Positions 1-22,646 of a stretch of DNA of 64,000 nt are shown here, one piece after another. A model generated the notes under the pieces. That model did not search any database and had not been told where the DNA came from. It saw only the letters and a program-made list of their open reading frames with translations. The translations under genes were made by a program, and so were the position numbers. This DNA comes from Aspergillus flavus (taxonomy: Eukaryota > Ascomycota > Eurotiomycetes > Eurotiales > Aspergillaceae). Location of the stretch: contig NC_092403.1 of assembly GCF_009017415.1 (NCBI RefSeq), positions 434,001 to 498,000 on the forward strand, written 5' to 3'. Each line of letters begins with the position of its first letter. The first letter of the stretch is position 1.

Positions 1-796
1 TGCGGTCGAACACCTTCTTGATTCCGACGTATCCGTCGCGAGCCAAGAGAGCACCGAAGAGTCCGTTGCGAGCGGCGAACGCGTGCTGTACACGCTTCAC
101 CATTCCTTCGTACTGTGCTGCCATCAGCCCGCCCGCCTGTGTGCAGGCGATCCCGACCGCTGACTCGGTGTCATCTGGGCTGAGGCCCAAGAGCTTCGAG
201 GACGCAGCTGCCGCTGCCGGAGAACCGAAGACCGGACCTGAGTGCCATCCCCGCGAAAGCAGATCTGCACCGTACATGGCGGATCCGACTCGTGGTCCCG
301 TTTCGAATCCCACCACTAGGGCAACGAGGAAATCGAGTCCCGAGACCACGCTCTTCCGGTGTCCCTTGGACTGCACTTCGGCTGCGGCGAATAATGCAGG
401 CAAGAGGACACTGGCGGAGTGGAGCGGTGCGGCACTGTGGTAATCATCTAGCTCTACGGCTTGGATGAATGAACCGTTGAGAATGGCCGCTGCTTGGGGG
501 CCGTATCGCTAGTTGCCGTTAGTCAATCATTCATTGGGTGGATATTGGATAGTTAATACCCGGTTGTATCCTATGACACTACAATATCCTTCGGGTTCAT
601 AGTCATCGATGGCCTTGGCTGCTTGCTCGGACCACGGGACGTGAGATCCGACCAAGCCACAGGCGATGCCGTCGAGCAGCAAATGTTTGGCTCGTTGAAG
701 GACATCTGCAGGGATGTCTGAGGGCTTGAGCTCTGTCACCCAGTTGCAGAGCTCTGCAGTGACGTTTCCTTCTGGCGTGGAGTCTGTGACGGTCAT
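1..796 (-). CDS. CadA-like (alkyl-)cis-aconitate decarboxylase, MmgE/PrpD family, 3' part missing at window edge
   Basis: Belongs to the MmgE/PrpD family and resembles fungal cis-aconitate decarboxylase CadA more than 2-methylcitrate dehydratase. I see the N-terminal stretch ending LLLDGIACGLVG, the motif ELDDYHSAAPLHSAS, and MVKRVQHAFAARNG, all features of CadA. The likely role is decarboxylating an alkyl cis-aconitate to an alkylitaconate. The start is the ATG at 796, because the preceding in-frame ATG at 841 adds a stretch unlike the family. One intron fits, 559-509 (51 bases), in phase 0. Exon 2 runs out of the window, so about 248 of some 490 residues are visible. It is divergent from the lactonase at 1144, sharing a 347-base promoter. 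No lesion is visible. Family assignment is sure; CadA versus dehydratase is an inference from motif similarity. Confidence 0.85.
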
Positions 797-1143
797 TGTG
801 TAATGATTGCGATGCTGAAGACAGGGAATATGGACTTTCACTCTCTCATTGGGTCTTAGAGGTCTTATTCATAAATAGAAAAATGCGGATGTATGACCCC
901 GAGACGATTTCTGGAAATTCCTCCACGCGGGTCCTCGGGGGCGTACGCCTCCCCTTCGCGGACCGGCGTCCGAGTCGCGCGAAGCATAGCAATTTCTGAA
1001 GCCGAGCAAGGCGAGATTGTATGTAGAATGGAGGCGTTACCGCCCGAAGGTCAGAGAACGAAGGTAGTTAAAAGAAGTAATCTTCACCAGAGAGACAGGA
1101 GACATTGTGACAGAATCACACATCCTATGGAACAGATTCAAAG
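797..1143. promoter_or_regulatory. Divergent promoter between decarboxylase and lactonase 1
   Basis: This 347-base gap separates two divergent starts and must carry both promoters. It holds a GC-rich patch with a 10-base palindrome GGCGTACGCC at 940-949 and an inverted repeat CCCCGAG (897-903) / CTCGGGG (935-941). These could be sites for a zinc-cluster regulator or just a local GC-rich patch. I see no clear TATA box. Confidence 0.45.
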
Positions 1144-2549
1144 ATGCTTTCCTACACTAGCCACTGTCTGCAGGCACTGCTCGGGGTCGCCTCCCTACCC
1201 TACCGGCAATACCAGGCGTACTCCAGCCCTCAAGCACCCCTCCAAGTACCCCAAGTACCCCAAGCCGGACCCCCAATCACCACACTGGTCTCGTCATGCG
1301 CGGGGTTCAGCTACCCGGAGGTTGCCTGTATTGATCGCTACGGATCCCTCCTGCAAGGCGAGTTCGAGCGCAAAGTACGCAACGTGCTTGGCGACGCCGA
1401 CACCTACATCTCCACCAACGCGCCGTCAGAACCAACCTTCTCCGATCTGCAGAATGCCGATTTCCTCGTATGGAACCAATCGGCGGCAAAGGCCATCCTG
1501 GGTCCCAACCCGCACGTCGATTTCATGTTCAGCATCGAGGACTGCTCCCACGAGGCTCCCGTGTACGTCCCCACTACTAACGAACTGTACTTCTCCCGCT
1601 TACAGCAGGGATTCCTCCCTCAACTGGTGATTAACTTGAACAATGACCCTCCTACTTTGGAAGAGAAGCTAGCCCAGCCACCTATTTACGCCGCCACGGG
1701 AGCGCGATTCCGTGATGGCCTCCTCTACCTCGCCACGATAGGCGGAAACGAGTCTCTTGCCGGCTACACGTTTCGTCCAGGTCTGTATACGTTGGACCCT
1801 ATTACGGGAAAAACTCAAGCTCTTCTGAACAACTACTACGGGTATTATTTCAATGCAGTGGACGATCTTGACATCGATCATGAAGGTCAGATCTGGTTCA
1901 CGGACAATGGTAACACTGCCTTCCTCCTCCCTACCCTCCCTACTCCACTACCTACCCCCCTATCAAACAGTCCAGCTAAACAACCAATTCCCAAAACTCG
2001 AAAGATTACGGCCGTCCCTGCCAAGTAAACACCTACGCCCCCCAAATCAACGCCGCCACCTACCGCTTCAACCCCAAAACCGGGCTCGTAACCATGGTCG
2101 ACGACACCCTCCTCGAACCCAACGGACTCACCTTCTCCCCGGACAACAAAACCGTCTATCTAACCGACACAGGCGCCGGCTCCGCAATCATCGACCCCAA
2201 CATCTACCCAGCACCGCACATCGCCTACAACTCCACGCGCAAAGGCCGCACCATCTACGCGTACGACGTGGCGCCGTCCCGCAAGGCATTGCTGAATAAA
2301 CGCCCCGTGTACTTGTCCATGGAGTATGCGCCAGATGGAATCAAGACTTCCCGGGAAGGGTATTTGGTGTCGGCGACGGGGAAGGGGGTGGTTGTTTTGA
2401 CGGATGAGGGGGAGCCGTTGGTGAGGGTGCAGACTAATTTCACGGTGATTAATATTGCGTTTGCCGGGGCGGAGAGGGATGAGCTTTGGGCTATTGGGAA
2501 GGGGGGTGTGGCGAGGATCAGGTGGGGGTTGAGGGGGTCTTATGCTTGA
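1144..2549 (+). CDS. SMP-30/gluconolactonase-like lactonase 1
   Basis: A six-bladed beta-propeller lactonase of the SMP-30/gluconolactonase/LRE family, hydrolysing or forming a lactone. Motifs seen: HEAPVYVP, DIDHEGQIWFTDND, EPNGLTFSPDNKTVYLTDTGAG and YAPDGIKTSREGYL, which supply the usual metal-binding Glu/Asn/Asp positions. One intron, 1910-2004, rejoins the frame exactly (GAT-TAC-GGC across the junction), giving 436 residues. The N-terminus is only weakly hydrophobic and is followed by a short QVPQVPQ repeat, so a signal peptide is doubtful, unlike its paralogue at 8252-9661. It is transcribed away from the decarboxylase gene. In known alkylitaconate lactone clusters such lactonases act late, on the bicyclic lactone. 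The substrate here is inferred from the neighbours. Confidence 0.88.
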
Positions 2550-3682
2550 TTCCTGTCTTGGGTTTGATGACTTACTTTTGGTGGTTTGGTTAATTTGGGT
2601 TCATGATGTTCATGTCGGGTTTCATTTGTGTCAAGGGTGAGATTTAGAGTCGTTTACAATCAGCGAAAGAGATCAAAGAAAATAAAGAGATCTCCATTAT
2701 CCCTGAACAAGAGGCTGCGCTTATTTTTGTAGACAGTGGACGAATACTCTAATTTAGGGCTGGTCTGACCCTAAACCCCGCGCCGTGGTGCCGCGTACAG
2801 GCACTGTTTCTATCCGATATATCAGATCGTTTCAACTAGATTGGGCACTGGGCGGAGTCAGCCCCGCCGGAGATGAGTGGATGCTTGGACTTACGGCTAG
2901 ATAAGATCCACCGATGCCGTGGCGGGGCGGAGCCTCGGAGAAGATATGATGCTTTGCATACGGCTGAATTATGGGTTCCGAGTGCTGGGGCAGAGTTGGC
3001 CCGTCGGAGATGGTGGGATGCTTTGATTTACTCCTGACCTGTGTTCTCCGAGTTAGGGCTTACGTGGATAATGCACGGGGCTCTGGCCTGATGCTGCTTA
3101 TGTAGTGTAGGTTATGTACACGATGGCATTTAACAATGTTATTCTAGGTTGCAGCTATGTTTTCTTTGGAGAATTTTATGCTGAATCCGGTTCTGCTGCA
3201 GGGACTTTGCAGAGAAGTATAAAAAGTTGCGCGCATAGAACATTCTTAACGTTGACAATGGCCGTTCACGGTTGCCGTCCATAGATGAGCACAGCACGCA
3301 GATAGCCTGATCTTTATAAAGCAGTGTGAGAAACTCTCTCTTAATTCATTTATTGATCCCCCTTTGGCGCTTATATGATAAGAATGCCCACTCACTATAT
3401 GCCTTTGCATACCAGGTGCATTCCTATCCAGAGCACCTCCAGGCACATAATTTGCTAGCGAACGCTTCTAAACCTGGGGTGTTTGTTACTACACAATTGG
3501 TATGCTGCGAGATCTCCCGCTAAGAGAAGGAATCTGGCTTATTAGGGCTCTTACTACTAGAATGTGATCACCACATGCATTTCTTATCGGACAACAGCCT
3601 TCTGGCAGCCATGATCAAGACGGGAGCCTGAGGCAGTCCATTCAAGCCCAGAAAAAGTAAGAATCTGATACTGGGTCTCTTG
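2550..3682. other. Intergenic, 1.1 kb, with degenerate tandem repeats
   Basis: No convincing gene. It contains the downstream sequence of lactonase 1, three degenerate repeats around 2849-3025 (listed separately), and unremarkable AT-richer sequence up to the end of the ankyrin gene. Confidence 0.6.
2849..3025. repeat. Three degenerate repeats of about 65-72 bases
   Basis: Three copies begin near 2851, 2921 and 2986. Each has a GC-rich head (GGCGGAG or GCAGAG), then CGGAGA, then GATGCTT about 10 bases on; copies 1 and 2 continue with TACGGCT. Copies are clearly related but diverged. This may be an old tandem duplication or the remnant of a small mobile element; the CGGAG words could also bind a zinc-cluster factor. 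Confidence 0.5.
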
Positions 3683-5668
3683 TCAGTTAGAAAGTGCAGC
3701 CACAATATCCTGCTTCAACTTGGCCTTTTTGGCAAACTCCTTCACATTTTTCCCGTTTTTGTTTCGGATAGAAAAGTCCACGTTCTGTGTTCCAACAAGC
3801 AACTGTACAATGGACAGATCCCCGCCTTGTGCGGCGTAGAAGATAGCAGTTCTGCCTTCAGCATCCCGCAAGTTGAGGTCAATATCTCGATGATTCAGTA
3901 ACCTTTCCACAATTGGCCTGTCATTCACAGCAATTGCGTACATAAGCGGAGTTCGGTCGGAGGGGTCCTGAAAATTGACGTTGACTTGCGGACTGCGTAG
4001 CAGAGCATCTACAAGTGGAGCATTGTGGCTTTTCGCGGCCCAAGAAAGGGGGCACCTCGTATCTCCGGCATGAAATAACCGCCTTTTATTCTGCTGCTCC
4101 AGGCGAATCAATTCCATTTGATAGGAGTAGAGGTGCGGATTAGATGGATTGGGGCTCGCAGAAGGTAAAGCGGATCTAAGAGAGATCTTTTGCGCCGCAC
4201 TAGATGGGTCATCGAAGAATGCGTGTGGGATTATTTCCGGCTCTGGTCGCCCCGGGCCATTAGGATGCGGATCTGACCCGTTTGGATCAGCGTTGGAAAA
4301 AAGAAGATTTTCGAAGCCTGGGCTCTTCCATAATCCACAGTGAATAGCGTTCCACAAAGCGACACGGGCAAACCCTTGGCCAGCCCATTCTTGTATGATG
4401 CAGTGGTTAGTAGACGCCGCTGGGAATCCTACCAGTGTTTCTTCTGTCACTTCCTTTGGGGGCGCCTCGGACAATGGATAGAAAAATTGCTGGATGAAAG
4501 AGAAGTTGCATGCGTGGAGACATTTCAGAATGGCCTGGTTCCAGATTTTCTTTTCTACCAAGAATTCTGTGACGCTAGTGAAAAGTCCTAGAGCGTCCTG
4601 ATCTTGATAACGTTTGAAGTATTGACAGAGTAAGACCCAAAAGGCTGGTGGTGGTTTCTTTGAAGAGACCCCATCGCAGTTCAAGACCCACGTCAGACCA
4701 TCAACCTCGTTAGCTCTGATCAGAAGGGGTAGTATAAGAGTTCCTGCTGCGCCACGAACGAGATCAATTACTTGCTTCACAAGGCCGTCGTCGCCGAATC
4801 GAAGCACATTCTGGAATGCACCTTGCAAACGAATCTCCCGACTATCAATAAACAGCCGATTGGGGACAGCCTTGTAAGCCAATCGGCGTGCAATGACACG
4901 GCCTCTTTCTGTTGAGATAGACAGAGGGCTGGCTAGCAGGTGGAGAAAAGCGGGCCAGTTATACTTGCCACAAATAGTCAAGTCGATGTTTGGGTGGTCG
5001 ATCAGAGTTGCGAGGATCTCCAGGTTACCCTTCTCAGCGGCCGCCGTCAAAGGTGTCTCAAACTGCCCATTGATCATGATCTTGCAGTTCACGTCGGGCA
5101 TGGATTCCCCAAGCAGAAACTCTACCAGTCGAAGCCCTGCATTGCGGCCTGCCTTCGTGGCGAGAAGAAGAGCGTAGTCAAAAATACGCGATGCAAAGGC
5201 AGCTTCTGCCCACGTCGCACGAACAGAAATCGCTCCCATTGCTGAAAAACTGTGGATTCTCTCTCGGGGGAGCCATCTTCTATGAGGGATTCAGTGCCAC
5301 TGACTTCAGAGTCCTGGTATTCAAACGCGCCCGTCTCTATCAAGAAATCAGCGATTTCATGAAAGCCCAGTGAGATGGCAGTTTTTTAAAGAACGATGTT
5401 CCCTTTCTGCATTGCAGTGCGGCCACAGCAGTGCGACAATATCCGCGTACCCCCCTCCAACAGCGACTTCGAGGAGGCTAGAATTTTGCGGCCCCCTGCC
5501 AGCTCCTAGACTCATAAGAAATCTGCAGGCTTCTGGCTGGCCACTCTGCACAGCGAACCAGAGAGGCGTCTTCCCGTCTTCATTGGGACCGTCGACATCA
5601 CAGCCTTGCTCAACGGCAAATTTTATCGCGTCGATGCGGCCTTGGCTTGCTGCTTCATAAATATCCAT
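3683..5668 (-). pseudogene. Ankyrin-repeat protein gene, frameshifted
   Basis: The N-terminal part, from the ATG at 5668, has ankyrin units (DGKTPLWFAVQSGQPEACRF). The long C-terminal part (from 5239) has more (DRTPLMYAIAVNDRPIVERLL, EGRTAIFYAAQGGDLSIVQLL) and ends at 3683. The two halves are in different frames. The first break is in a run of six A on the coding strand at 5382-5387: with five, the reading continues as KTAISLGFHEIADFL, a proper ankyrin unit. A second shift near 5240 is needed, or a poor intron there. Intact, the protein would have about 650 residues. Ankyrin proteins bind other proteins; no enzymatic domain is visible. It sits inside the metabolite cluster but has no obvious role in it. 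A sequencing error in the A run is possible. Confidence 0.6.
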
Positions 5669-6800
5669 CGTTCTGGATCCACTTATTGTTTGATGTGAGA
5701 TCTGACGGAAAGAGGAATCAAGAAATCATAGCAATTGAACAACGTGGGTATGTATCACCAACTCGGTGCGGGCGCTTAGGAAGAACGATGTGGTTGGGCG
5801 AGAAAGAAAGGGGGATCCACTTCGGGGGCGGGGCTGGAATAGCCCTTGCGCCCAATTTAGGAGATCTTTTAGCCATGTACTTCGTACTTTTGTCTGTGTC
5901 TCTCTAGTTTTCGGACCCGTCGTCAAATCGACAGTGGCTGGAAATGTTTGTTGATTGATTGATTGTATGATCGACATTCGAGGCCGTGCAGTATGCTCAC
6001 CGCTTTGTTGACCGCCTCCGACTCTCTTATCAGTCATGTGAAAAGTGGATCGGATCAACCCAGCTCCGTGGACAACCCGAGGTTCAACCTCCGCGTTCTC
6101 TGTCGCTTAGTAAAACCTGACTAAGATTTTCTTTGTCTCTTAATAACTTCTTTATATCAACAGGTTTGGGTTTGATATATTATATATAGATTCTGTGCAT
6201 CATTCCTTACTGAATCCAAATAAGAAAAGGACAGAAAGCTCAGCGTTTACTCTTCGTTGAGGAAACCATTCATGTATCTGAGTTCCGCGGAGTGATATAT
6301 ATATTCTCTGGCAATGGATATGCCAAGGCATGCAATCTAGAGACTCCCCCCCTGTACTGCAGTAAAAGGACTGGGATAAACAATCAATGACCATACACCA
6401 CGTGTGCTATGTTAAGCGGATATCAGATAGGAATCGGGAAATCATCGTGGAAAGCCACACTTTTAATTTTGTTGAGCAGCATGAATGATGACGTTGTTCC
6501 TCTACAATCTGCTGGCAATTGATAACGGACAGCAAAGCGGTCGACAAAGCGGTGGCTAGTTCAACAGCGGTCAATTAGGCGGTAGAGATACTGCTGGAAT
6601 TGAAGTTATGGTGGAGTGACGGCATGCTGGTAGTGCTTAAGTTATGCATGTTTTAAACTTTATCGTGAACTTATATCCAGTACATTTACATGGAGTAATA
6701 ATTGCTTCATATTGCGATAGAAATCTTAGAATTCATGATGAAATATTCTTCAATGTACAACAATATCTAGAACCCATTCTCAAAACCCAAGAAAAACCGA
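5669..6800. other. Intergenic, 1.1 kb
   Basis: I see no gene I can support. It lies between the start of the ankyrin gene and the 3' end of the cupin gene and has short AT-rich stretches such as the TATATAT run near 6175-6190. Confidence 0.5.
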
Positions 6801-7340
6801 TCAGTGCTTAACCTCGCCCAACGACTCGCCCAACTCCTGGCCATTGACGATGACCGGCTTGGCATCCAGGGCAATATACAAGGCGCGCGCAAACTGAGTC
6901 TTGCTGGGGTTGCGCCAGCAGTGGTTGGTACCTCTCTGCACGGCAACATCACCCCTCTTCATCAATCGCTTCTCGCCGCCTTCCACCTCCAGCTCCAGCT
7001 CGCCCTCAATGACCACTCCGAAGTCCACGGTCACAGTGCGATGCCACATGGGCTCACAGCCTGGGTGGTAGTCGACGTAGCGCACGACGGCACCGCCGGG
7101 GATCATGAAGGGAGGGTGATTGACGAGGTGGTCCTTGTATTGGTTCAAGTCGGCATCGTGGCTGAGGGGAGCGGGAAAGGACCCGAGGGTGTAGGCGAGG
7201 AAGAAATCGACGCCAATGTTGGTGCGCTCCCATTCGATTGGCTCGGGGATTTTGGTCTCGAAGGTGGGGGTTCCGTCTTCCTTGTGGGTCGTGATGAAGC
7301 GGTGGACTTGGGGGAAGTCTTTCTCAGGAAGGGAGCCCAT
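6801..7340 (-). CDS. Cupin-domain protein
   Basis: Intronless, 179 residues, one cupin barrel. The core is near residues 90-150: HRTVTVDFGVVIEGELELEV followed by RGDVAVQRGTNHCWRN. This is the fungal small-cupin pattern in which one His of the usual metal set in motif 1 is replaced, while motif 2 keeps GxxHxW. The N-terminus has no targeting signal, so the protein is probably cytosolic. It lies between the two lactonases and may share regulation with them. Similar cupins in fungal clusters are proposed to act as isomerases, dehydratases or decarboxylases, but I cannot assign a reaction. Length and motifs are normal and there is no sign of damage. Confidence 0.85.
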   Translation of the reverse strand: MGSLPEKDFPQVHRFITTHKEDGTPTFETKIPEPIEWERTNIGVDFFLAYTLGSFPAPLSHDADLNQYKDHLVNHPPFMIPGGAVVRYVDYHPGCEPMWHRTVTVDFGVVIEGELELEVEGGEKRLMKRGDVAVQRGTNHCWRNPSKTQFARALYIALDAKPVIVNGQELGESLGEVKH

Positions 7341-8251
7341 TTTGAAGGTTGATTGCTGATGGAGGACTTGAGTAATTGAGGAATTGATTGTCTGATTGAG
7401 TGATTGATTCTGAGTGAGTTGGAATCAAGACCTCCATGATTGGGATGTTATTTATGTGATCCGTGGTTTGGATGATGTCGGGCATCGGAGGACGATGGTT
7501 CGGAAGCTTGTGGTCTTCTCGGTCTCGTTGCAACCGCAGGCGGAGGTCGGCGCCCGAGCCCCGCAGCTCTTATGCAAGCATGACAATCCATGGGTGAGTA
7601 ATCGAGGACTATTGCTCATGTAATTCGTATTAGCTGAGAAACTTCTTTGTCTTTTTTTATCACTTTGTTATGTTACTATCATTATGTTATTGTCCTCAGT
7701 TGAAGTCCTACTCGATGATGGTATGCTTCCTCTATTGCTGATGCTTTCTTAGGGTTAGGGTTCCCGCCCCACGTATATCGACTGCTCTCCGTAAGCACTT
7801 TACTTTTCTTGTCTCTAAAGTAATCTTCCCACATTTCTTTCGGAAAATCCTTCCTTATCGCTGTGACAGAAATGACCTCCGATTGACTGATCTTGATACC
7901 TCTACACGAGGATAAACCCCCTGCCAAGAAAACACAAGAACTACGGAGTAATGTTGTCGCAAAGTTACTCTAGTGCTTATGTTTGGAAAAAGTCAAAGAA
8001 GAAAGCCGGCGACGGTAGAATTGGATCTCTATGGAAAAACACCTTCACTAAAGAATACCCACCTCAGTGGGGAATGGATCACAAGTAGTGTGACAAAATC
8101 TAAAAATATTTAAGAAGAAAGAAAAAGAAGAAGAAAAAAAAATAACAAAAGAAATGAAGACTGAAGGATGGGAGAAAGCGGGAAAGAAAGAAGGAAGAAA
8201 GAAGGAAGAAAGAAGGAAGAAAGGAGAGAAAGGCAATCACAAATCCAACTC
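7341..8251. other. Intergenic, 0.9 kb, promoter of the cupin gene and a purine tract
   Basis: Holds the upstream region of the cupin gene and the convergent 3' side of lactonase 2. A short open frame at 7682-7927 on the minus strand has no recognisable features. The only clear structure is the purine-rich tract listed at 8098-8240. Confidence 0.5.
8098..8240. repeat. Purine-rich low-complexity tract (GAA/GGAA repeats)
   Basis: About 140 bases almost purely A and G on the plus strand, including tandem GAAGAAA and GGAAGAAA units near 8185-8232. Such tracts are common microsatellites and may affect the 3' end of lactonase 2 transcripts, which stops at 8252. Confidence 0.75.
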
Positions 8252-9661
8252 TTACTCTAGAGCAGGACCAGTCAAGTTCAGTCTAGCTCGCGCAACAGCG
8301 CCGTGCCCAACAATCCACAGCTCATCCAAGTTCTTACCACCAAAGACCATGTTCACGGCGGTGAAGTTAGTCTGGATGCTTAGCAATGGTGTGCCGGTGG
8401 TATCAAGGATGTCAACACCCTTGCCCGCCCCGGTAATCACATATCCATTGCTAGCCACCTTAAGACCATCAGGAACGAAGTCCTTCGCTGTGTAGATCGG
8501 TCGGCGGTTCTTGAGATACGATCCATCCTCGCTCACGTCGAAAGCGTAGACTGTGCGACGGTTGGTGGAGTTGTACTGGAGCGATGGCACCTCGCTCAAT
8601 GGCACTCTCGGGTCAATCATGGGGACACCGGCATCAGTGTCTGTGAGGTAGAGGGTTTTGTAGTCGGGAGAGAAAGCAACACCATTGGGACAATGCAGGG
8701 TGTCATCCACAATATTCACTGCTCCAGTTTCTGGGTCGTAACGGTAAACCGATGCCTGGACCTGAGGGGCGACTGTCGAGGTACCGTGGTTGCGGGCGAG
8801 GACTATAGCTGCATCAGTATGGACTAAGGTGAGATCCCGGGTCCAGGAACTTACAAGGATCACTAAACCAGATGCGACCGTGTTGGTCAATATCCATGTC
8901 GTTGGCCTGTGTTGAAAAGTTAGTCCGTGAGCCACTAGGCGTGGATCCACCAATGTGCAGAAATGCGACAAAGGGGACCCGCCTCGCGTATGGGCAGTGG
9001 GCATGCTTACCTGGTTAAAGTACCATCCAAAATAGTTGTTGACCTCAATGGTGGATTTCCGGGTTTTGGGATCCACCGAGTAGATTCCTGGGTGATAAGG
9101 ACCCCCTTCCAGGGTGGAATTGCCACCTCCAGCGGAGAAATAGATCTTTCCATTCCTATAGCGGGCCCCGGATGGAGCGTAGAGAGGTGGGTCGGTCAGA
9201 ACCTCTGAGATGGTAGGGGAATCACCATCCAGACTGATGACCTGCTGGTGTAGCTCTCCTTTACCCAGTTCAGAGAACCACAGCTCGTTGGTGTCCGGGA
9301 CATATACGGGCGCCTCGTGTCCGCCAGTTGAGATAGTAAACACAATATCATACGCCGGGTCGGATCCTAGGATTTCGCTACCACGCTGTTGATCCCAGAC
9401 TAGGAATGTGGCCTTCCCAACCTGCTGGAACGAGTCGTCATTGGCCACTTCGGTCGATGAGTAAGTGTCCACGTTACTGATGTCGACGCTGGCCTTGCGG
9501 TAGAAGTCAAGGGGCATTTTCGACGCATAACGGTACATGCAGGCGACACGTGGGAAGCTGTAGCCAGTGCAGGCTTGAACCAGGGGGGTGGAATTGTTCC
9601 CGGCAGATGCTAGCGGGGCTATGCATAGCGCCAGGGAGACCAATCGCAGAGATAAATACAT
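8252..9661 (-). CDS. SMP-30/gluconolactonase-like lactonase 2, secreted
   Basis: A paralogue of lactonase 1 with the same order of motifs: HEAPVYVPDTNELWFSELG, DMDIDQHGRIWFSDP, CPNGVAFSPDYKTLYLTDTDAG, FVPDGLKVASNGYV. The ATG at 9661 is chosen over the one at 9721 because it opens a clean signal peptide (MYLSLRLVSLALCIAPLASA). Introns fit at 9010-8907 and at 8854 to either 8809 or 8803; both acceptors keep the frame, giving 419 or 417 residues. The protein should be secreted or enter the secretory path, where it would form or hydrolyse a lactone, presumably the cluster product. It is divergent from the dioxygenase gene at 10467 across a promoter with striking repeats. Confidence 0.88.
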   Translation of the reverse strand: MYLSLRLVSLALCIAPLASAGNNSTPLVQACTGYSFPRVACMYRYASKMPLDFYRKASVDISNVDTYSSTEVANDDSFQQVGKATFLVWDQQRGSEILGSDPAYDIVFTISTGGHEAPVYVPDTNELWFSELGKGELHQQVISLDGDSPTISEVLTDPPLYAPSGARYRNGKIYFSAGGGNSTLEGGPYHPGIYSVDPKTRKSTIEVNNYFGWYFNQVSMPTAHTRGGSPLSHFCTLVDPRLVAHGLTFQHRPTTWILTNTVASGLVILVSSWTRDLTLVHTDAAIVLARNHGTSTVAPQVQASVYRYDPETGAVNIVDDTLHCPNGVAFSPDYKTLYLTDTDAGVPMIDPRVPLSEVPSLQYNSTNRRTVYAFDVSEDGSYLKNRRPIYTAKDFVPDGLKVASNGYVITGAGKGVDILDTTGTPLLSIQTNFTAVNMVFGGKNLDELWIVGHGAVARARLNLTGPALE

Positions 9662-9985
9662 GGTGGGATTTTGCTGACGATTTATAGAGATGTAAAACGA
9701 GTGACTTGATGTTGATGCCACCCAAATGAGACGAGAAATTACCCTCTACTTATACTTCGTCTTCTATCTACTGAATGACAGACTCAGGTCCAGCTGAAGA
9801 AGAACACTGCCTTCTAATCTCCTGTTGGGGGCCGAATCCTTCATCATCTTACGTTCGAGATGAGATACATCGAGGCTCGAGCACTATGTTAGACTTCCGC
9901 CAATGCATCAACCACATGGCACATCCCGGCCAGACCACGTTGTGCCAGGAACTAAACAAGGGTGGCCTGAAATGCAGAAATCCTG

Positions 9986-10005: not shown

Positions 10006-10048
10006 TGACACAACTCAAACTAGGCTGACGATTAGCGATGCATGGGGC

Positions 10049-10466: not shown

Positions 10467-11709
10467 ATGCACTCCACCAAGGTCACCTACCCCGAGCCTA
10501 TGCAGCTCAGCGGTATTCTCGATCAATACGAGTCCTTCCAGGTCACTCCCTGCATTGGTACTGAATTCCCCAAGGCGAACTTGGCCGAATGGCTCTCCTC
10601 GCCCAATGCCGATGCTCTCTTGCGCGACCTGGCCATTACGAGTAAGTATCATCTTGACCCACAACAAGAAAAGCCACACAGCAACTAACTGATCACACTA
10701 GTTGCGCAACGGGGAGTTGTTTTCTTCCGTGCCCAGACTGACCTGGACGGAGAACTCCAGAAGGAGCTCACCCACCGCTTGGGTGTGCAATCTGGCAAGC
10801 CAGCTGGCCACCGTCTGAGCAAGCACCCCCTCCACCTTATCCGTAAGGATGACCCAGAAATGGGCGTCCTCGACCCCGGCCGCCAGCAGAAGCTGCACGG
10901 TGTCGAGAACACCCAGAAGCGTCAGCGCGCCGTCCTGGAGTACCACAGCGATGGCTCCTATGAAGTCTGCCCCCCTGACTTTACCATGCTCCGCATGACC
11001 GAGATCCCCCCCACCGGTACGCTAACCACTATCAATCTACTGCACCCCACATACTGACGAATCCAGGTGGCGACACCCTCTGGGCTTCCGGATACGAGCT
11101 CTATGACCGTCTCTCAACCCCCTACCAGAAATTCTTCGAGTCTCTTACCGCCCAGCACGAGGTTCCCTCCCTGCGCAAGCTGGCTGAAACCGAACCCGGC
11201 ATCTACGATGGCCCTCGTGGTGCTCCCGCCAACACCGACATGCAGTTCAAGCAGTCTCACGTACGTAGCCTACCCCCAATCACAGTCTCTGTTCCCATCT
11301 AATCCTCTACAGCCCATGGTCCGCACCCACCCCGTAACAGGCTGGAAGACCCTCTTCGCAGGCGGTCTTCACTGCCGCCGCGTCAACGACGTTACCGATT
11401 TCGAGAGCGAACAGCTCCTGAGCAAGATCATCTCTCTCGTCGGCGACAACCACGACCTCCAAGTCCGCTTCCGCTGGAACAACCCCGGCGATGTTGGTGA
11501 GTACAACCTCCAAATCCAAACCATGCCTAACACCCTGTCTAACCTCAATAGCTATCTGGGACAACCGTTGCGTCCTGCACTGCCCTACCCAGGACCACTA
11601 TGGCCTCGGAGGCCGCATGGGATATCGCACCATGGGTATTGCTGAGAAGCCTTACTTGGACCCTAACAGCCCTTCTCGCCAGGAGGCTTTGGCAGCTGCC
11701 GCTAAGTGA
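10467..11709 (+). CDS. TauD/TfdA-family 2-oxoglutarate/Fe(II) dioxygenase
   Basis: Oxidises an unreactive carbon using 2-oxoglutarate and Fe(II); here the likely substrate is the alkylitaconate or its lactone precursor. The proximal iron ligands are His140 and Asp142 in EYHSDGSYE, and the distal His is His299 in DNRCVLHCP; a later Arg (GYRTMG) is placed to bind 2-oxoglutarate. Four introns fit exactly (10642-10701, 11017-11066, 11261-11312, 11497-11551) and give 341 residues, normal for the family. No targeting signal, so cytosolic. It follows a promoter shared with lactonase 2. The family is certain, the substrate inferred. Confidence 0.92.
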
Positions 11710-12748: not shown

Positions 12749-14341
12749 CTACATCTCCTCAAGAATCCCACTCCGTTTCCTCAAAACAGCCCCATAGCGC
12801 CACAGCAGGACCGGAACCAGCCCACCCATCACCAAAGCCCAAAGCGCCAGCAAGGAACTGCCCCATCCATACCCAAGAGTTCTATAGATCAAAGGAGCCA
12901 AAATCGGTAAAACAAAGCCGAGCAGCGACCGCAGAATCGTCAGGGCACCCATCGCTGACGCAGCATACACCGCATAGCAGTCCAGCACATAGGCCTGAAT
13001 ACATTGGTAACTCATTATCAGGCCCAGGGCATAGATGCTGATTCCGATGTTGGGCATGATCCAGTGGCTGTGGGTCTGGGCGGACCAGCCGTAGATTAGT
13101 AGGCCGGTAGGAACGAGCAGGGCGGCTGGGAGCATGAGGATTGTTCGAAGCTCGGGAGTTCCTTTGGCGGGGTCTTTGGAGGTGTAGTGGATGTAGATCT
13201 GGGATTGTTAGATATTTGGATAGGGTTAGGAAAGGGGATGAGGAAGGGTACCCGGTCGTTGAGGGAGCCTGTGATTTGGCTGCCGAGGATGAAGCCACCG
13301 GCGATGGAGATGTAGTTTAATGCTGCGCGGGATGGGGTTTGGTTGTAGATATCTGTCCAGACGGACTCGAATGTGGTGATGGAGAGGTGGTTTAGGCCAA
13401 ACAGATAGCCCATGAAGAGGGATAGGACTTGTATGATGGGCTGGGTTCCGAGGAAGGTGAAGGGTCGGCGGAGATCCTGTCTGAATACATCTGCTAGACT
13501 CTTATGATGGTGCTGTACAGAGCCCGGCAGCTGACCTTTGCGGACGGCAGCAGCTTGTTTGCGTTGGATGAGGACTGGCCGGAAGGTCTCGCGAAGTGTA
13601 CAAAGACCGACCACCCATGTGATGAGGATGTAAAGCGAGCACCAGGCGAATATTGCCCGCCATGATGTGTGGGACACGATGTATGCACCTGTGATGGGTG
13701 CGATGGCCGGACCAAGCAGGGGCCCTAGAGTGTAAAGGGAGATGGAGAGGCCTCGCTCTTCTGGAGCCCATAGGTCACCGATTATACCTGCGCCGATCTA
13801 TTTCCTTCGTCAGCGATGGTTAATGTACGACTGAATATTACTCACAGAGAGTGGAGCGCTACCAACGGCGCCCGTGATAAACCGAAGAATGAGCAATTCG
13901 TAGTCACTACGAGCGAACGCGCATAGGGCATTAAAGACAAGAAACAAGCCATGCCCGGTATTCAACAACGAGATGCGCCCGTAGACTTCGGACAAAGGAC
14001 CGACCACCAGCGGTGCAAAGCTCCAGCCGAGGACATAAACAGAAACGAAGGCTTGCAGCATTCCTGGGTCGGTAACATTCAAGTCTGTGGCTATTTGCGG
14101 CATGGCAGGCACGATGATTGCTGCGATGACTGGACTGATCAGTCCGTAAACTGAAATCACGGCAATACATAGCCAGCGGTAGGAAACCTTCCAATTGCGA
14201 GGCTCTTCCCACTCTTCTAGCTCTTCTAGAGAAGGAGAAGGGTCCTTGGGGCATTAGCTTTAGACACGGCCAGAAGCTGAGCGACAAACTTACATCGGAC
14301 TGGGAAAGCAGTCTCGTTCTTTCGTTTACTTCTTCGGCCAT
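12749..14341 (-). CDS. MFS transporter, DHA1 drug:H+ antiporter type
   Basis: A twelve-helix major facilitator of the fungal multidrug DHA1 group. The first helix follows a hydrophilic N-terminus (MAEEVNERTRLLSQSD). Signature features are GPLSEVYGRISLL after helix 2, the antiporter motif C-like GPLLGPAIAPITGAYI in helix 5, and RETFRPVL at the central loop. Three introns fit at 14293-14245, 13845-13798 and 13251-13199, giving 480 residues. The first intron ends in AAG rather than the preferred CAG or TAG, so that acceptor is less sure. In this cluster it most likely exports the acidic or lactone product across the plasma membrane. Confidence 0.9.
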
Positions 14342-14924
14342 GATGCTCTATAGGCAGAAATTGTGCAATTGTCTTTAGGTTCCGAGGAAACGTTCTTGGC
14401 TATATAGACACGCCTAAACAGCTATGAACGTGGAATGAGGGGAACAGCATAAATATACGACATCTCGAAAGTACGACAAAACATATCTGTATACCCCGGT
14501 TCTAGAACTCGGAGTAGAACGACCGACGTGAAATGGCGTTGCTGCCGATCGCCGAGAGAATGTCAGCGCTAGACCCGAGTACGAGGAGACGAAGCACGGT
14601 AGATATGCAGGTGGACCCTTCGGAAGACATTGGAAAGTTTCTAATTTCGGATCCAACAATACTGGCTATCCACAATTCTCCGGATAGACCAATCTTTTCC
14701 GAATATGGCTTATGTTTGACGTTGGGGCACACCAAGCAAAAAATCTTTAACTTCAACTACTCGTCTTACTGCTGAAGTGCCCTCTTGGAATAAAAGAAGA
14801 GAAAAAGAAAAAGAGGAACGAAATTTGGAATATACATAAATCACAGTAAAGCTCGGTCGTCTAAGTTGCTGTCAAACAGGACACAGGGAAATTACTAAAA
14901 AGCCTCCAAAGAAACTTCGCAGAA
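14342..14924. other. Intergenic, 0.6 kb, promoter of the transporter gene
   Basis: Upstream of the transporter and downstream of the citrate synthase gene, both on the minus strand. I see no gene and no clear repeat. Confidence 0.5.
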
Positions 14925-16436
14925 TCACTCATCCATGGACTTGTTCAGGTCACCGGTATAGATCTGACCCGGCCGCCAGATTCGAGGAGGATTGCCTATA
15001 TTCGTGTCAGGACAGATGCTTCTAGAGGAATTTAGGGTAGATTCTGGCATACCCATGGCCTCTCTCCAGTGGGCCATAAACCCTTGTGTGCGGGAGAGAA
15101 TCGACAGAGGCAGGATGAATTCGGGCGGGAACCCACTATAGCACAGGGTTAATACCACTATAATCCAGAAATCACGGGAAAAGGAACATACAGAGCCTTG
15201 TAGACAAACGCAGCGAACAAATCCGCGTTGGGGCGGAGATTCCTGGACGTGAAGTACTCATCTTCTGAGGCAACACGGTCGACCTCGAATGCAACTTTCA
15301 ACAAGGGGTCCTTCTCCACTTCCTCGGACAGTTCATTGAGGATCTCACGGATGAAGACAAATCGAGGATCTGTCACACGATAGACTCGGTGGCCGTAACC
15401 ATACAGACGTTCCTTTCCTGCCTTGACGCGGGCGATCTTGGCAGGTACATTGGAGATGGAGCCGATGCTCTCAATGTTCTTGTAAGCGACTTCAATGGCT
15501 CCACCATGGAGAGGACCATACAATGCCGAGATGGCGGAGACCATGCAGGAGATAACATCCGGTAGGGCAGATGCGGTTTGAAGAAGGGCCGCAGTGGAGC
15601 AGGTCATTTCATGATCGGCAATGAGGACCCAGAGTCGCTCAATGGCATTCACGTATCGCGGGTTTGGCAGGCCAGTAGCTGCCTCAACATGACCAGTCAT
15701 GAGTAGGAAGTTCTCAATGTACGATAGCCCCGCGCGGGGTGGAGTGAAGTCACGTCCGATGTGATGGCAGTATGCCGCGGCTGTCAACATGGACATGTTT
15801 GCCATGACCCGAATGATCTGTTGATCGGCTAGCTCGGGATTGTTCAGATAGATGGTCTTTCCCACATGAGCCGGGATCGCATTCATATCACTGGACTGGA
15901 GCGCTGATAGACCGGCGATTACCATTCCCATAAGGGAACCATCTCGTCTGCTGCTGGTCAGCAAGAAGCACCCGTAGGAGGGTCAGTTTTGGGAAGACGT
16001 ACGGAAAGGATTTGATCACATTGAAGACAAAATCCTGAGGGACAGGAACCTGGTCGAGGCGTTGCTGAAGGGTTTCGGCCTCGGCGGTGGAGGGCCAGTG
16101 ACCCCAGATCAGGAGATGCGCGGTATCGATAAACGTCTTGCGTCCGACAATGTCATTGATGGAGTACCCACGGTACTGGATAGTGCCCTTGAGCCCATCA
16201 ATATAGGTGATCTTACTGTGACTGACGGCAGTGTTGGAGTAGCCTGGGTCGTAAACCCGCAGCCCATTCTCCGTTTGGTTGGCAGGGTAAGCTTTGTCTT
16301 CTGGCGCGGTCACTTTTTTGAAATCGCTGGCATTGATGGCATTGTTCACAATGGGAATCGAGTAATAAGATCCAGTACGGTCATCAATAATGTGTAGGGA
16401 TTCCCGCTTGGGAGAGGCTTCTTGGGTCACAGTCAT
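14925..16436 (-). CDS. Citrate synthase family enzyme, probable alkylcitrate synthase
   Basis: Condenses an acyl-CoA with oxaloacetate. Catalytic residues are in place: His292 in GPLHGG, His331 in YGYGHRVY and Asp387 in RPNADLF. Two introns fit (16002-15948 and 15191-15136), giving 466 residues. The protein starts MTVTQEASPKRE with no mitochondrial presequence, unlike the housekeeping citrate and methylcitrate synthases, so it is probably cytosolic or peroxisomal, where FAS products are available. It is divergent from the FAS alpha gene with a 676-base shared promoter. Dedicated citrate synthases next to FAS genes make alkylcitrates in known fungal clusters; that context, not the sequence alone, supports the substrate call. 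Confidence 0.93.
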
Positions 16437-17112
16437 GATGGGCGATGGATGCTAAGGGTGAGAGGCAATGAGGATGTAATCTGGAGTCTATTTGTCGAGG
16501 ACTGATGGTTTCAACCTGCCATATTTATGTCATCAGAGTAAACAATCGCATAGCCATGAATCGGATCAATATTGCTTCCGACTTCTGCATGAAAGCAATA
16601 CGGATCTAGATTGATTCCGGGTGAGAATGGACCTTGGATGTGGATTTCGGCCAACGGCGGCCGATGAGCGATCCAACTTCCTCCGGGGGGGTTTTAGGGC
16701 CCGCTGTACGATAGTCAACCCTAACACCGTTATCTCGGGTTGGAGGCGGCTCCAGAGTATGTGGATTTTGGATTGGTCATGATTCACCCTATCCCGTGTA
16801 CCGGGGATCATGATTCTACCATACGCAGGCTCGCTATCGCTATCTCGTTACTACGGGAGCGCTGTACATGTGGCAATATAAGCCCGATGCATCCGAGAGA
16901 TGTTGCAAGAAGCCTGAAGATAACGTTATTCTTAGTGTCACCTTTAGATTGTGAAGAAAGTCTATTTATGTTCATGCCCCCTACCTATAATATAATCAAT
17001 TGTGCCTTGCGATACCCACGACCACAGCCACGACAATAGCTGGAACGACGGCAGGAAAACGACCACAACAATAGCCACGCCAGCCAGAGACTCTACTGAT
17101 TCTATAGCAACA
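16437..17112. promoter_or_regulatory. Divergent promoter between citrate synthase and FAS alpha
   Basis: This 676-base region must control two enzymes that work in sequence. It contains an inverted repeat TCGGCC-6-GGCCGA at 16647-16664, listed separately, and a short A/C-rich stretch just before the FAS start. Confidence 0.6.
16647..16664. promoter_or_regulatory. Inverted repeat with CGG half sites
   Basis: TCGGCC and GGCCGA are separated by six bases (AACGGC). Paired CGG triplets are the usual form of fungal zinc-cluster factor sites. The position, about 210 bases upstream of the citrate synthase start, suits an activator site. Confidence 0.45.
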
Positions 17113-20100
17113 ATGGTTCAACGCAAAGAGCCACCGTCAGAGCAGCTTAGAGCCTACACATTGCTCATTGAGCTCTTGTCGTACGTTGCAAACCCCATGA
17201 AACGTGTGAGATGCTAACGCAGTTTAGGTATCAATTTGCCTTTCCCGTCCGATGGTGAGACTTCCTCGTTACCAACATAACAGAAAAGGGCTAATTAGGA
17301 ATGCCAGGATTGAAACACAAAATGATCTAATCCAGCGAAATAATACTATCCAGCGCTTCGTTGAAGTGGGACCATCCAATGTCCTGGCGAACATGGCGAA
17401 GAAGACAGCCAAGGGCCAATACGCTGAAGAGGATCTGGTGCGCTGCGTAGACCGTCAGTACCTATCGCACGCCGACGACGCCCAGCACATCTACTACCAG
17501 TATGATGAAGAGGCACCGGTGGAAAGCGCTGATAATGAACCGGCCCAACCGGCCGCCTCGTCCACCCCTGCTGCTCCGGCACCAGTGGCTGCGCCACCGG
17601 TGGTAGTTCAAACAGCGCCCCAGCCAGCTGCCCAGGCAGCTGTCGCTGTACCCGATGTCGACTTGAGTGCAATCGACGTTGTCATCTCCATAGTCGCTCA
17701 GAAGATCCGCAAAGCATTTGACGAGGTACCCGCAGCGAAGTCTATCCGCGATTTATCCGCAGGTACGTTCCGTCTCGATAGCTGCTCATTGTGTGTTCAT
17801 TCTAACTCGGACAGGCAAATCCACATTACAGAATGAGCTAATCGGACAGCTGGACGCTGAGTTTCGCGGTCTGCCAGAAGGAAGTGAAGATCTCGCGCTA
17901 GAAGCACTGGCCTCCCACTTCACAAACTTCTCTGGACAACCTGGTAAGGTGATGGGCGGACATATCGATCGCCTCGTGGCCGCCCGTATGCCTGCAGGTT
18001 TCAACCAAGCCAAGATCAGAGACTATCTCTCCTCACACTGGGGACTAGGCCCCAATCGGCAGACCACCGTTCTGTGCGATGCGGTAACAATGGAACCGGC
18101 TGCTCGCCTCGCAGATGCCGGTCAGGCAACGCAGTTCCTAGATTCAGTGGTGAGCCGATACGGCGGAAAGGCAGGCATAGCTCTACAGAAGAGAGCGGAG
18201 GGTGGAGCGTCACAGACATCCGCTGTGGCCCAGGTCGACTTGGCTAGTCTTGAAACCCTCAAGAAGGAACAAAATGAGTACTTACACAAACAGTTCCAGC
18301 TTCTCGCCAAGCATCTAGATTTGGATGGCGTGGCGCAACCCAGTCAAACCCAGGTGCAAGGGGAGGATACTGACAGGCTGGCTGAATGGGACGCCGAATT
18401 CGATGAAGAGTTTCTCACGGGTATGCGGACGATCTTCGACCCGCGGAAGGCTCGTCGTTATGATTCATGGTGGAATACGGCCCGAGAGGACCTCATGGCC
18501 TTGTTGCACGACATCCGTCCTGCTGCCGAGGACAAGGCCTCGCAGCGATACCAGAGCCTTGTCAATCGGTGGTCACCAGAATTGGAGCAGATGCTGGAAC
18601 ACAGTGCTCAGGATGACACGACGAAGGAGAAGGCTCAGATGCTGCTTGACGATGTTCGTGCTTCGGGAGTAGCCAACGGGCCAGTCTTTCGTTATACTCA
18701 GCCTGCTATGGCGCCTGAGACGAAAGTCGATGCGAACGGGCGCATCCAGTACTCTGAGGTGCCTCGTCGTCAGCTCCACGGTGAGAACAAAGCTTCCACC
18801 CTGAACTACGCGCAGGTAGTTGCAGCTCGACACCGCGACGTGCCCTATGCGCACCTCCGCAGCCGAGCCGGTGTGGATTGGAAGTATGACGACCAGCTCA
18901 CGGACATGTTTTTGAATATCCTATCTACCGGAGCCTCTACCGGACTGTCATTTACCGGCAGAAGAGTACTGGTGACCGGTGCTGGAGTCGGTTCGATTGG
19001 AGCAGACATCGTGGCCGGGTTGCTGGCCGGTGGAGCGCACGTTATCGTCACCACCAGTCGTCAGCCTTCAGATGTCGCTGCATCCTTCCGCCAGCTCTAT
19101 GCGAAGGTCGGAGCTCCTGGATCAGAATTGATTGTGCTGCCATTCAACCAAGCCAGCAAGCGTGATTGCGAGGAATTAATCAACCACATCTACGACGAGC
19201 AGTCGGGTTATGGTTGGGACCTCGACTTTATCATCCCCTTCGCTGCCATCTCCGAGATCGGACGGCAGATTGACAAAATCGACTCCAAGTCGGAATTGGC
19301 GCACCGTGCCATGCTGGTTAATCTGCTCCGCTTGTTGGGATTCATCAAACAGCAGAAGGAAAAACGGGGTTTTGATTGTCGGCCCACAGGTGTCTTGCTC
19401 CCCTTGTCTCCAAACCATGGTAACTTCGGTGGAGACGGCTTGTATTCTGAGTCCAAGCTGGGGCTGGAGACCCTGTTCAATCGCTTCCATTCTGAGGGCT
19501 GGTCTGACTTCCTTTGCATTATCGGTGCCGTGATCGGCTGGACCCGCGGCACGGGTCTGATGAGTGCCAACAATATCGTCGCCCAGGGTATGGAAGACTC
19601 ATTGGATATACTGACATTTTCTGCCCCCGAGATGGCTTTCAATATTCTGTCTCTCCTGTCAGGCGACATCCTCGAAGTGGCGGACGATGAACCCATTTAT
19701 GCGGATTTGAGTGGAGGCCTTCAAGGTGTCAGTGACCTCAAGGACAAGATTTCGGCTATTCGCAAGAAGATCGTCTCGGACAGCCGGATCCGCCAGGCGC
19801 TGGTCGCCGAGAATCTACACGAGCAAAAGGTTCTCCGAGGCACGAAGCCTGCTGAGGGTAATGTTCAACCTCCTCTTAAACGCCGCTCCAACATTGAGCC
19901 GGCCTTCCCACCTCTTTCAGATTACAACTCGGTGACAGCTGGCCTCCAGTCCTTGCAGGGAATGGTGGACCTGTCTCGCACGGTGGTGGTGGTAGGTTAC
20001 TCGGAGCTGGGCCCTTGGGGCTCTTCGCGTACACGCTGGGAGATGGAGCATGAGGGCCGCTTGTCTCTGGAAGGTTATACCGAACTGGCATGGATGATGG

Positions 20101-22646
20101 GCCTTATTAAGCACTTTGACGGTGATCTTAAAGGCAAACCATACACCGGCTGGGTTGATTCCAAGACCAAAGAAGCGGTGGACGAGGCGGATATTGAGGA
20201 GAAATATGGGCAGCATATCTTGGGCCATGCTGGCATTCGGGTGATAGAGCCCGAGCTGTCGGAGGGATATGACCCTTCCCAGAAAGAGATCATGCACGAA
20301 GTGGTTATCGATGAGGACCTCCCTCCCTTTGAAGCTCCCCAGGGTGTCGCCCAGGCATTTAAGCTGCGACATGGTGATAAGGTCATCTTGACGCCTATTG
20401 AAGGTTCAGAATCTGTCAAGGTTGTCGTCAAGAGTGGAGCTGTCTTCATGGTGCCTAAAGCTATGGCATTCAATCGGTTTGTCGCCGGTCAGCTCCCGTC
20501 CGGGTGGGATCCAACTCGTTACGGTATTCCTGAGGACATTGTCGCTCAGGTGGATCCTATGACTGTCTATGTTCTATGCTGTGTATCTGAGGCTATGTAT
20601 AGTGCTGGACTAGAGGATCCATTTGAGCTGTACCGCCACATCCACGTATCTGAATTGGCTAACTGCGTCGGCACTGGTGCCGGAGGCTTGTTGGCTATGC
20701 GTGGCGTGTATCGGGACAGATATCTTGATCGACCTGTGCAAAGCGACATTCTCCAGGAGTCTTTCCTCAACGCCATGAACGCCTGGACGAATATGCTTTT
20801 AATGGGGGCTGCGGGTCCTATCAAGTCGCCCTCAGGCACATGTGCGACCTCGGTAGAGTCTATGGATATAGCCTGTGAAGCAATCCAGACACTTAAGGCC
20901 AAGGTTGCTATCGTTGGTGGCTCCGATGACTTCCAGGAAGAGATGTCCTATGAGTTCGGTAACATGAAGGCCACTGCCAACGCAGAGGACGAGTTGGAGA
21001 AGGGATATCTTCCTTCAGAAATGTCCCGACCTACAGCATCCTCTCGCAGTGGCTTCGTCGAGTCCGCTGGCTGTGGTATCCAACTGGTCATGAGCGCCGA
21101 GCTAGCCCTTCAGATGGGCCTTCCCATCTACGGAATAGTCGCTTACTCCCAAATGGCAGGCGATAAGGTCGGCCGGTCTGTGCCTGCACCAGGCCAGGGT
21201 GTACTCACGGCCGCCCGGGAAAGCATTGATGCGGCGCAATCACCCTTACTGGATGTGCAATACCGCAAGGCACGATTGGACGAAGCTGTCTCTGAGATCA
21301 AGAGATGGCGACACACAGAGTCACAGAAGCTCATCGCGTCCACGACCTCTAAGGAGTTCAAAGATCTCGATGCGCACCTGCAACACATCAACAACATCGC
21401 CGCGACCCGCATCCGGGATGCTCAGTGGACATGGAATAATAACATCCGTCATATAGATCCCACTATTGCTCCCATGCGCGCCGCCCTGGCAACGTGGGGG
21501 TTGAGTGTCGACGACATTCAAGTGGCGTCCTTCCACGGCACGTCAACCAAGGCCAATGACAAGAATGAAAGCAACGTTATCAACCAGCAAATGACTCACC
21601 TGTCGCGCACGGTTGGCAACCCACTTCTCGTCATATGCCAGAAATCCCTGACAGGCCACCCGAAGGGTGCAGCCGGAGCGTGGATGTTCAATGGCTGTCT
21701 CCAGGCTCTCCAAACCGGAATTGTACCCGGCAACAGGAATGCAGATAATGTCGACGTGGCGCTCCAGCAGTTCAAACATCTGGTTTACCCATCACAGACG
21801 ATCCATACATCAGGTATCAAGGCATTCATGTTGACATCGTTCGGCTTCGGACAGAAGGGTGGCCTCGTTGTTGGTATCGCCCCTCGCTATCTCTTCTCCA
21901 CTATTACGGCCAATAAGTTTGAAGATTACCGCGAGCGGGTGCTTCAACGCCAGCAAAAGATTATTCCCGTGTTCCAAAGGCGTATGGCACAGGGCCGTCT
22001 TTTCCAGATCAAAGATCAGTCGGCTTGGACAAGTCATCAAGAAAAGGACGTCTTTCTCAATCCCCAGGCCCGTGTCGCTCAGAAGTCTACTGGCGAATAC
22101 AGCTTTCCAACGACGGTTGCGCCAGTTGCATCATCACTGCCCGCGAGAACTGTTTCCGACGACAAGCAGCTCTTCGCTAGATCTTCTGATCAATGGCTGC
22201 GCGACAGCATAAGTAAGGAGCAGGGAAATGTGTCCGTTGGTGTAGACATTGAGTCTATCTCCAGTGTCAATATCGAGGATGAAATATTCCTGGAACGCAA
22301 CTTCACGCCAGGGGAGCTCAAATACTGTCAAGGTAGCCCAGATAAGCAAGCAAGCCTTTCAGGGCGCTGGGCGGCCAAGGAAGCGATCTTCAAGAGTCTA
22401 CAGATACCGTCTGAAGGTGCAGGCGCTGCGATGCGGGATATTGAGATCGTCAGCAATGGTGCTCAGCCACCAACCGTTCTGGTAAGACCGAGCCCACTGG
22501 TCCTCTCGTTATAGCTGACCATTGCTTAGCTTCACAATCGGGCCAAATCGGCTGCCGATGCCCAAAAGGTGGAAGAGGTCCAGGTTAGTATCACGCACTC
22601 CCCAGAGAGTGCCATGGCTATTGCTTTAGCACGACGTCGTTTATAG
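17113..22646 (+). CDS. Fatty acid synthase subunit alpha, dedicated to the cluster
   Basis: Fungal type I FAS alpha chain. Domain order: N-terminal part of the malonyl/palmitoyl transferase (YQFAFPVRWIETQ, VEVGPSNVLANM), Ala/Pro-rich linker, ACP with phosphopantetheine Ser186 in AGKSTLQNE, ketoreductase (TGAGVGSIGADIVAGLLAGG), ketosynthase with Cys1193 (SGTCATSVES), His1424 (HGTSTKAND) and His1465 (GHPKGAAGAW), and a C-terminal phosphopantetheinyl transferase (GVDIESISSVN, RWAAKEAIFKSL). Introns at 17181-17227, 17255-17307, 17763-17814 and 22482-22529 restore the known family sequence and give 1,777 residues, somewhat shorter than the usual 1,850-1,890. It needs a beta subunit, absent here. 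All active-site residues remain, so the gene looks functional, making short acyl chains to feed the citrate synthase. Confidence 0.95.

What the first reader, a model, noticed from the sequence alone, without database searches (positions are those of the whole stretch)
1..22646. Alkylitaconate-type lactone cluster, with FAS beta and dehydratase absent from view
FAS alpha, a citrate synthase without presequence, a CadA-like decarboxylase, a TauD dioxygenase, two SMP-30 lactonases, a cupin and an MFS exporter lie together. This gene set is established for fungal alkylcitrate-derived lactones (sporothriolide, canadensolide, avenaciolide, hexylitaconate). The order, the cupin and the missing beta subunit differ from a complete cluster, so the product may be new or the remaining genes lie left of position 1 or unlinked.
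Basis: partly seen in the sequence, partly recalled or inferred. Interest (0 to 1): 0.75.

Follow-up and report, generated by a model that had tools for sequence, protein, structure and literature searches.

The report
Known oryzine (alkylcitrate lactone) gene cluster
This stretch is the right-hand part of the already published oryzine gene cluster of the Aspergillus oryzae/flavus group, in which a dedicated fatty acid synthase and a citrate-synthase relative are thought to build small lactones; the genes that seemed missing lie just left of the window edge.

Summary
The window is G000:C8:434001-498000 of a 37.7-Mb genome, A. oryzae/flavus-like by inference. Nothing expected is missing: a 2-methylcitrate dehydratase (C8:414.4-416.1 kb), FAS beta (416.3-422.7 kb) and a Zn2Cys6 regulator (427.1-429.6 kb) lie within 20 kb left of position 1. 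Domains and order fit the published oryzine cluster of A. oryzae, about 47 kb (Wasil 2018): 16 of 17 tabled genes matched by domain and place. Kuhnert 2021 already says the sporothriolide cluster is 'highly similar' and shares 'the same set of genes'; Palys 2020 describes the A. oryzae/A. flavus locus. Likely route, inferred: C8 acyl-CoA plus oxaloacetate, alkylcitrate, dehydration, decarboxylation to a hexylitaconate, chain hydroxylation, lactone. Small additions: the cupin (StrC-like fold; the word 'cupin' is absent from the 2018 text) and its recurrence beside the lactonases. Already known; low interest.

The parts
1..868 (-). oryM, cis-aconitate-decarboxylase-like (MmgE/PrpD); continues left to about C8:433300 (700 bases left of position 1)
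   Evidence: solved-structure matches
1144..2549 (+). oryL, SMP-30/gluconolactonase-like; exons 1144-1909 and 2005-2549
   Evidence: model agrees with P0132
3683..5725 (-). oryK, ankyrin-repeat protein, role unknown
6801..7340 (-). cupin (179 aa), SpoI relative, StrC-like fold; either the unassigned oryJ or a gene that Table 1 of Wasil 2018 leaves out
8252..9661 (-). oryH, SMP-30/gluconolactonase-like, SpoH relative; exons 9661-9011, 8906-8855, 8802-8252
10467..11709 (+). oryG, TauD-type alpha-ketoglutarate dioxygenase; five exons, 341 aa, H-x-D and distal His/Arg present by eye
12749..14253 (-). oryF, MFS exporter (limits approximate)
14925..16436 (-). oryE, citrate-synthase-like alkylcitrate synthase (limits approximate, spliced model not made)
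17228..22514 (+). oryfasA, FAS alpha: ACP, helical domain, KR, KS, PPT (5' limits approximate)
22963..24181 (-). oryD, stand-alone histidinol-dehydrogenase-like gene; cluster membership uncertain
25190..26067 (-). oryC, sugar-transporter-like; two exon-sized pieces; cluster membership uncertain

Best explanation
This is the oryzine (ory) biosynthetic cluster of an A. oryzae/flavus-type fungus; the window holds its right-hand part. Mechanism: a dedicated two-subunit FAS (OryfasA/B) makes a C8 acyl chain, which, as CoA thioester, is joined to oxaloacetate by the alkylcitrate synthase OryE; OryR dehydrates the alkylcitrate; OryM decarboxylates the alkylaconitate to a hexylitaconate; the dioxygenase OryG hydroxylates the chain; lactone closure, with OryH and/or OryL acting to close or reopen it, gives the alpha-methylene lactone acids oryzine A and B, exported by an MFS pump. 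Shown here: genes, domains, order, part of the active-site motifs, co-location. In print for relatives: the sporothriolide route (decanoyl-CoA, alkylcitrate synthase, dehydration, decarboxylation, hydroxylation, lactonisation) and the decarboxylase step in A. niger (hadA). Inferred: every step for this locus; in what I read, no gene of this cluster had been tested.
For: 16 of the 17 rows of Wasil 2018 Table 1 have a counterpart here by domain and place; oryJ has no domain to match. The table's order (its accession numbers run down from oryfasA to oryR) is the order here; Figure 3 was not seen. Size about 47 kb in both. Genome counts agree with that paper: 5 FAS beta; 5 FAS alpha by my reading (4 of them confirmed, the C3 one not examined); 5 citrate synthase loci, one of them weak (E 4e-7, part of the domain). 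Dehydratase and decarboxylase told apart. OryG: of the rows covering at least 85% of it, 6 of the 120 listed are 67-97% identical (including Hypomontagnella submonticulosa) and the rest 56% or less. Cupin 65% to SpoI; OryH 51-53% to an H. submonticulosa protein and to 'SpoH' of Seiridium. [quoted passage not shown]
Against: The link of oryzines to this cluster is by genome inspection in the 2018 paper, not by knockout. I compared with the published table by domain and order, not letter for letter with A. oryzae RIB40; the species here is inferred. Chain-length residues of the FAS do not match the substitutions engineered in yeast for C6-C8, so C8 is not predicted from sequence. No expression data. 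The A. oryzae in-cluster regulator is only 28% identical to akcR of A. niger.
Confidence: 0.93

Rival explanations
1. The cluster makes a different alkylcitrate lactone in this strain (for example a canadensolide- or avenaciolide-type bis-lactone), because the dioxygenase and lactonases set the ring pattern.
For: Kuhnert 2021 attributes the oryzine/sporothriolide difference to dioxygenase and lactonases; OryG is 76% identical to an H. submonticulosa enzyme. A section Flavi survey scores (-)-canadensolide in 6 of 28 species (which species was not read off).
Against: Locus fits the oryzine cluster in order and content; Wasil reports >99.5% similarity between the A. oryzae and A. flavus loci.
Confidence: 0.15
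2. One or both SMP-30 proteins are not lactone-forming enzymes but lactone-opening, self-protecting hydrolases, and ring closure is spontaneous or due to OryG or the cupin.
For: SMP-30 relatives are mostly known as hydrolases (family knowledge); OryH has a signal-peptide-like start (by eye, no predictor run), so it may act in the secretory path or outside; I recall, from no call, that the sporothriolide paper describes an in-vitro hydrolase linked to self-resistance. In A. niger a dienelactone hydrolase is proposed to open rings in the related pathway.
Against: OryH and OryL are only 47% identical to each other, and in two other fungi one relative of each type sits on the same contig, which fits two distinct roles as well as one; the sporothriolide paper was not available.
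Confidence: 0.4
3. The cluster is decaying and silent; it makes nothing.
For: The oryQ (P450) frame matches only profile positions 312-414 of 462 (one frame scanned, further exons not sought); the 2018 paper also calls oryQ truncated.
Against: OryG, OryH, OryL and the cupin have open models; the FAS alpha, FAS beta, OryE, OryM and OryR reading frames are long; 12 OryH rows from Aspergillus species are 91-98% identical, two of them over part of the length.
Confidence: 0.05

Closest known systems
Oryzine (ory) cluster, Aspergillus oryzae RIB40 (Wasil et al. 2018, PMC6162547; abstract, sections 2.5, 3 to 3.4, 4 and tables/legends read)
   Same: Domain content, tabled order, size, P450 fragment, counts of FAS and citrate synthase paralogues
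   Different: No difference found, but not compared letter for letter. The words 'cupin' and 'oryI' do not occur in its text, and the table has 17 rows for the 18 genes stated; the cupin is either its unassigned oryJ or the untabled gene
Sporothriolide (spo) cluster, Hypomontagnella (Tian et al. 2020, not held; seen through passages of PMC8403587 and PMC10565555)
   Same: FAS, alkylcitrate synthase, dehydratase, decarboxylase, dioxygenase, lactonases; protein named SpoI 65% identical to the cupin; SpoH-type lactonases 51-53% identical to OryH
   Different: C10 starter and furofurandione product instead of C8 and a monolactone acid
Alkylcitric acid (akc) cluster, A. niger (Palys et al. 2020, PMC7338620; abstract and passages)
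   Same: FAS alpha and beta, citrate synthase, 2-methylcitrate dehydratase, regulator; the paper itself pairs it with the A. oryzae/A. flavus locus
   Different: Contiguous five-gene core; decarboxylase hadA unlinked; a dienelactone hydrolase instead; the words cupin, lactonase and dioxygenase do not occur in its text; regulator only 28% identical
StrC-type cupins (8x0u/8x0v; the str and rus clusters are named in PMC11915489, passages)
   Different: That family is described beside HR-PKSs for alkyl salicylaldehydes; that 8x0u is the str-cluster cupin is inferred from its name; the substrate here must differ

Membership tests
Oryzine cluster | FAS alpha and beta subunits in one locus with a citrate synthase | tested here: met
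   C8:454.5, 418.6 and 449.2-450.2 kb
Oryzine cluster | 2-methylcitrate dehydratase next to FAS beta, aconitate decarboxylase in the middle | tested here: met
Oryzine cluster | TauD dioxygenase, two lactonases, MFS pumps, Zn2Cys6 regulator, acyl-CoA ligase, P450 fragment in the published order | tested here: met
Oryzine cluster | Sequence identity to A. oryzae RIB40 genes | tested here: inconclusive
   One A. oryzae row (P0227) 96% over 48% of OryG; A. flavus rows 97-98% for OryH; no letter-for-letter comparison with RIB40
Oryzine cluster | Produces oryzine A/B | not testable with these tools
   needs LC-MS
Maleidride clusters (dimeric anhydrides) | HR-PKS as chain maker | tested here: not met
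   FAS instead; the only ketoacyl-synthase match on C8 between 306 and 855 kb is the FAS alpha of this cluster (that search scores the best candidates only)
Maleidride clusters (dimeric anhydrides) | KSI-like dimerising cyclase and PEBP-like protein | tested here: inconclusive
   None among the 30 reading frames scanned by Pfam; short multi-exon genes could be missed
StrC-type cupin | Same fold and sequence family | tested here: met
StrC-type cupin | Same reaction | not tested
   no assay; the StrC reaction itself was not found in the papers I saw

The most novel reading that the evidence does not exclude
A cupin of the StrC fold and two SMP-30 lactonase subfamilies travel as one module in FAS-based alkylcitrate lactone clusters, and the cupin carries out an unrecognised step, for instance moving the double bond or steering which acid closes the ring, so that module and dioxygenase together decide delta-lactone against furofurandione. 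The word 'cupin' occurs in none of seven alkylcitrate or maleidride papers whose held texts I searched for it; the sporothriolide paper itself was not held.
Probability: 0.3. Interest if true: 0.4.

Novelty: already known. Interest (0 to 1): 0.15.

Why it matters
It removes a false lead: the window edge cut a known cluster in two. What remains open is modest but testable: what the recurring cupin does, whether the lactonases close or open the ring, and whether the histidinol-dehydrogenase-like gene belongs to the pathway at all.

Tried and rejected
Rejected: FAS beta or dehydratase unlinked or lost. Rejected: the edge gene as the dehydratase. Rejected: cupin as a distinguishing oddity. Led nowhere: FAS chain-length reading. 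In 4 of the 5 FAS pairs (the C3 pair, which I take to be the aflatoxin one, was left out) I compared the positions equivalent to yeast KS 1251 and 1279, AT 306 and MPT 1834 (mutations in PMC5353594, passages): at KS 1251 this cluster has Ala, the second C8 pair Gly, C5 Ile, C7 Leu; at AT 306 Met, Leu, Ile, Ile; Phe and Arg are kept at the other two. The small KS residue is not what was engineered, so no chain length follows. The yeast KS numbering is by motif, partly recalled: a plain offset gave a number two higher, so it is approximate. Splice models with extra introns were dropped; one search gave no models; the OryH query lacked 10 residues later restored. NCBIfam added nothing to the naming (no match for the cupin and P0132; none over the curated cut-off for P0102, P0222 and the OryE frame; of the 25 rows shown for FAS alpha only the phosphopantetheine-transferase domain passes). 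Paper searches for 'alkylcitrate synthase' with 'cupin' (0 papers), for SpoI with cupin and lactone terms (27 papers with at least 3 of 4 terms, 10 listed, none of those with SpoI) and for sporothriolide self-resistance (192 papers with at least 2 of 3 terms, 8 listed, none of those with sporothriolide) found nothing of use. The 2018 paper was read by section; every other paper cited was seen as passages or abstract only.

Full report
What is there. The window is G000:C8:434001-498000 of a 37.7-Mb genome in 8 contigs. Spliced models were made for OryG (10467-11709, five exons, 341 aa), OryH (9661-8252, three exons) and OryL (1144-2549, two exons); the last two were corrected against relatives. 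The cupin is a single exon, 6801-7340. OryE, OryF, FAS alpha, OryC and OryD were left as unspliced frames.

Searches of the whole genome find five FAS beta loci, one at C8:418558, five MmgE/PrpD loci, among them C8:415030 and the window-edge gene, and five citrate synthase loci, one of them weak. Reading 30 kb leftwards gives, from left to right: 2-methylcitrate dehydratase, FAS beta, a P450 fragment, acyl-CoA ligase, Zn2Cys6 regulator, MFS pump, and then the decarboxylase that crosses the window edge. The dehydratase frame matches solved 2-methylcitrate dehydratases at E 1.5e-110, while the edge gene matches cis-aconitate decarboxylases at E 1.6e-21 and no 2-methylcitrate dehydratase among its 10 matches. 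The two paralogues are thus told apart.

Identity. The order R-fasB-Q-P-O-N-M-L-K-(J)-H-G-F-E-fasA-D-C is the tabled order of the oryzine cluster in Wasil et al. 2018 (PMC6162547; sections read; figures not held): about 47 kb, 18 genes stated, 17 tabled. Of the 17 rows, 16 find a counterpart here by domain and place; oryJ has no domain to match. That paper's counts, four further FAS pairs and five citrate synthases, agree with the counts here (four of the five FAS alpha were examined). It reports a >99.5% similar locus in A. flavus. Palys et al. 2020 (abstract and passages) describe the A. oryzae/A. flavus locus as an alkylcitrate cluster with an in-cluster decarboxylase. Kuhnert et al. 2021 (passages) state that the sporothriolide cluster is highly similar to it and shares the same set of genes. 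The species here is inferred: OryH relatives in A. flavus are 97-98% identical. I did not compare with RIB40 letter for letter.

How it works. The sporothriolide route, as summarised in PMC10565555 (passage), runs decanoyl-CoA, alkylcitrate, dehydration, decarboxylation, hydroxylation, lactonisation. Applied here with a C8 chain it gives the C11 oryzines described in 2018. The route preferred in 2018 used OryM for decarboxylation with dehydration and the histidinol-dehydrogenase-like OryD for enoyl reduction. The dedicated dehydratase OryR makes a separate dehydration more likely (inference), and histidinol dehydrogenase relatives are known to me as alcohol oxidisers rather than enoyl reductases (family knowledge), so the OryD assignment is doubtful. 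None of these steps has been tested for this locus in what I read.

The lactonases and co-location. Of the 29 non-self cupin rows at 56% identity or more over at least 97% of the query (P0002-P0030), 6 share species and contig length with a row of the OryH or OryG search. In Parahypoxylon ruwenzoriense the locus tags of lactonase, cupin, lactonase are consecutive (009955, 009956, 009957); there and in Nemania FL0031 one lactonase is nearer OryL (62%) and the other nearer OryH (52-53%). These lists show cluster representatives, the best 120 of 159 (lactonase) and of 5087 (dioxygenase) hits, so absences mean nothing, and shared contig length is indirect evidence of co-location.

Verdict. Novelty: already known. 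Interest 0.15.

Noticed in passing
window 22963-24181 (-) and L039 (C1:460249-462721): The genome has two stand-alone histidinol-dehydrogenase-like loci besides the one in a large frame on C2. The C1 copy sits about 0.5 kb from the gene most like this cluster's cupin (49% identical), beside SDR, FAD monooxygenase-like and Zn2Cys6-like frames (by eye); a cupin and a HisD-like gene near each other twice may be meaningful.
   Followed up: partly
L032:279-719 (-), C8:424279-424719: P450 frame matching only profile positions 312-414 of 462 beside the acyl-CoA ligase gene: probably the truncated oryQ of the published A. oryzae cluster; further exons were not sought.
   Followed up: partly
C8:278738-279337 and C8:285745-286794: A second FAS alpha/beta pair about 130 kb left of this cluster, with Gly at the KS gate position where the C5 pair (taken as housekeeping) has Ile.
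   Followed up: partly
window 31303-35143 and 52937-61202: Further reading frames that look by eye like an SDR (31303-32313), an acyltransferase (33878-35143), a P450 in two frames (52937-54511) and an MFS pump (59745-61202), outside the oryzine cluster; not scanned (frames).
   Followed up: no
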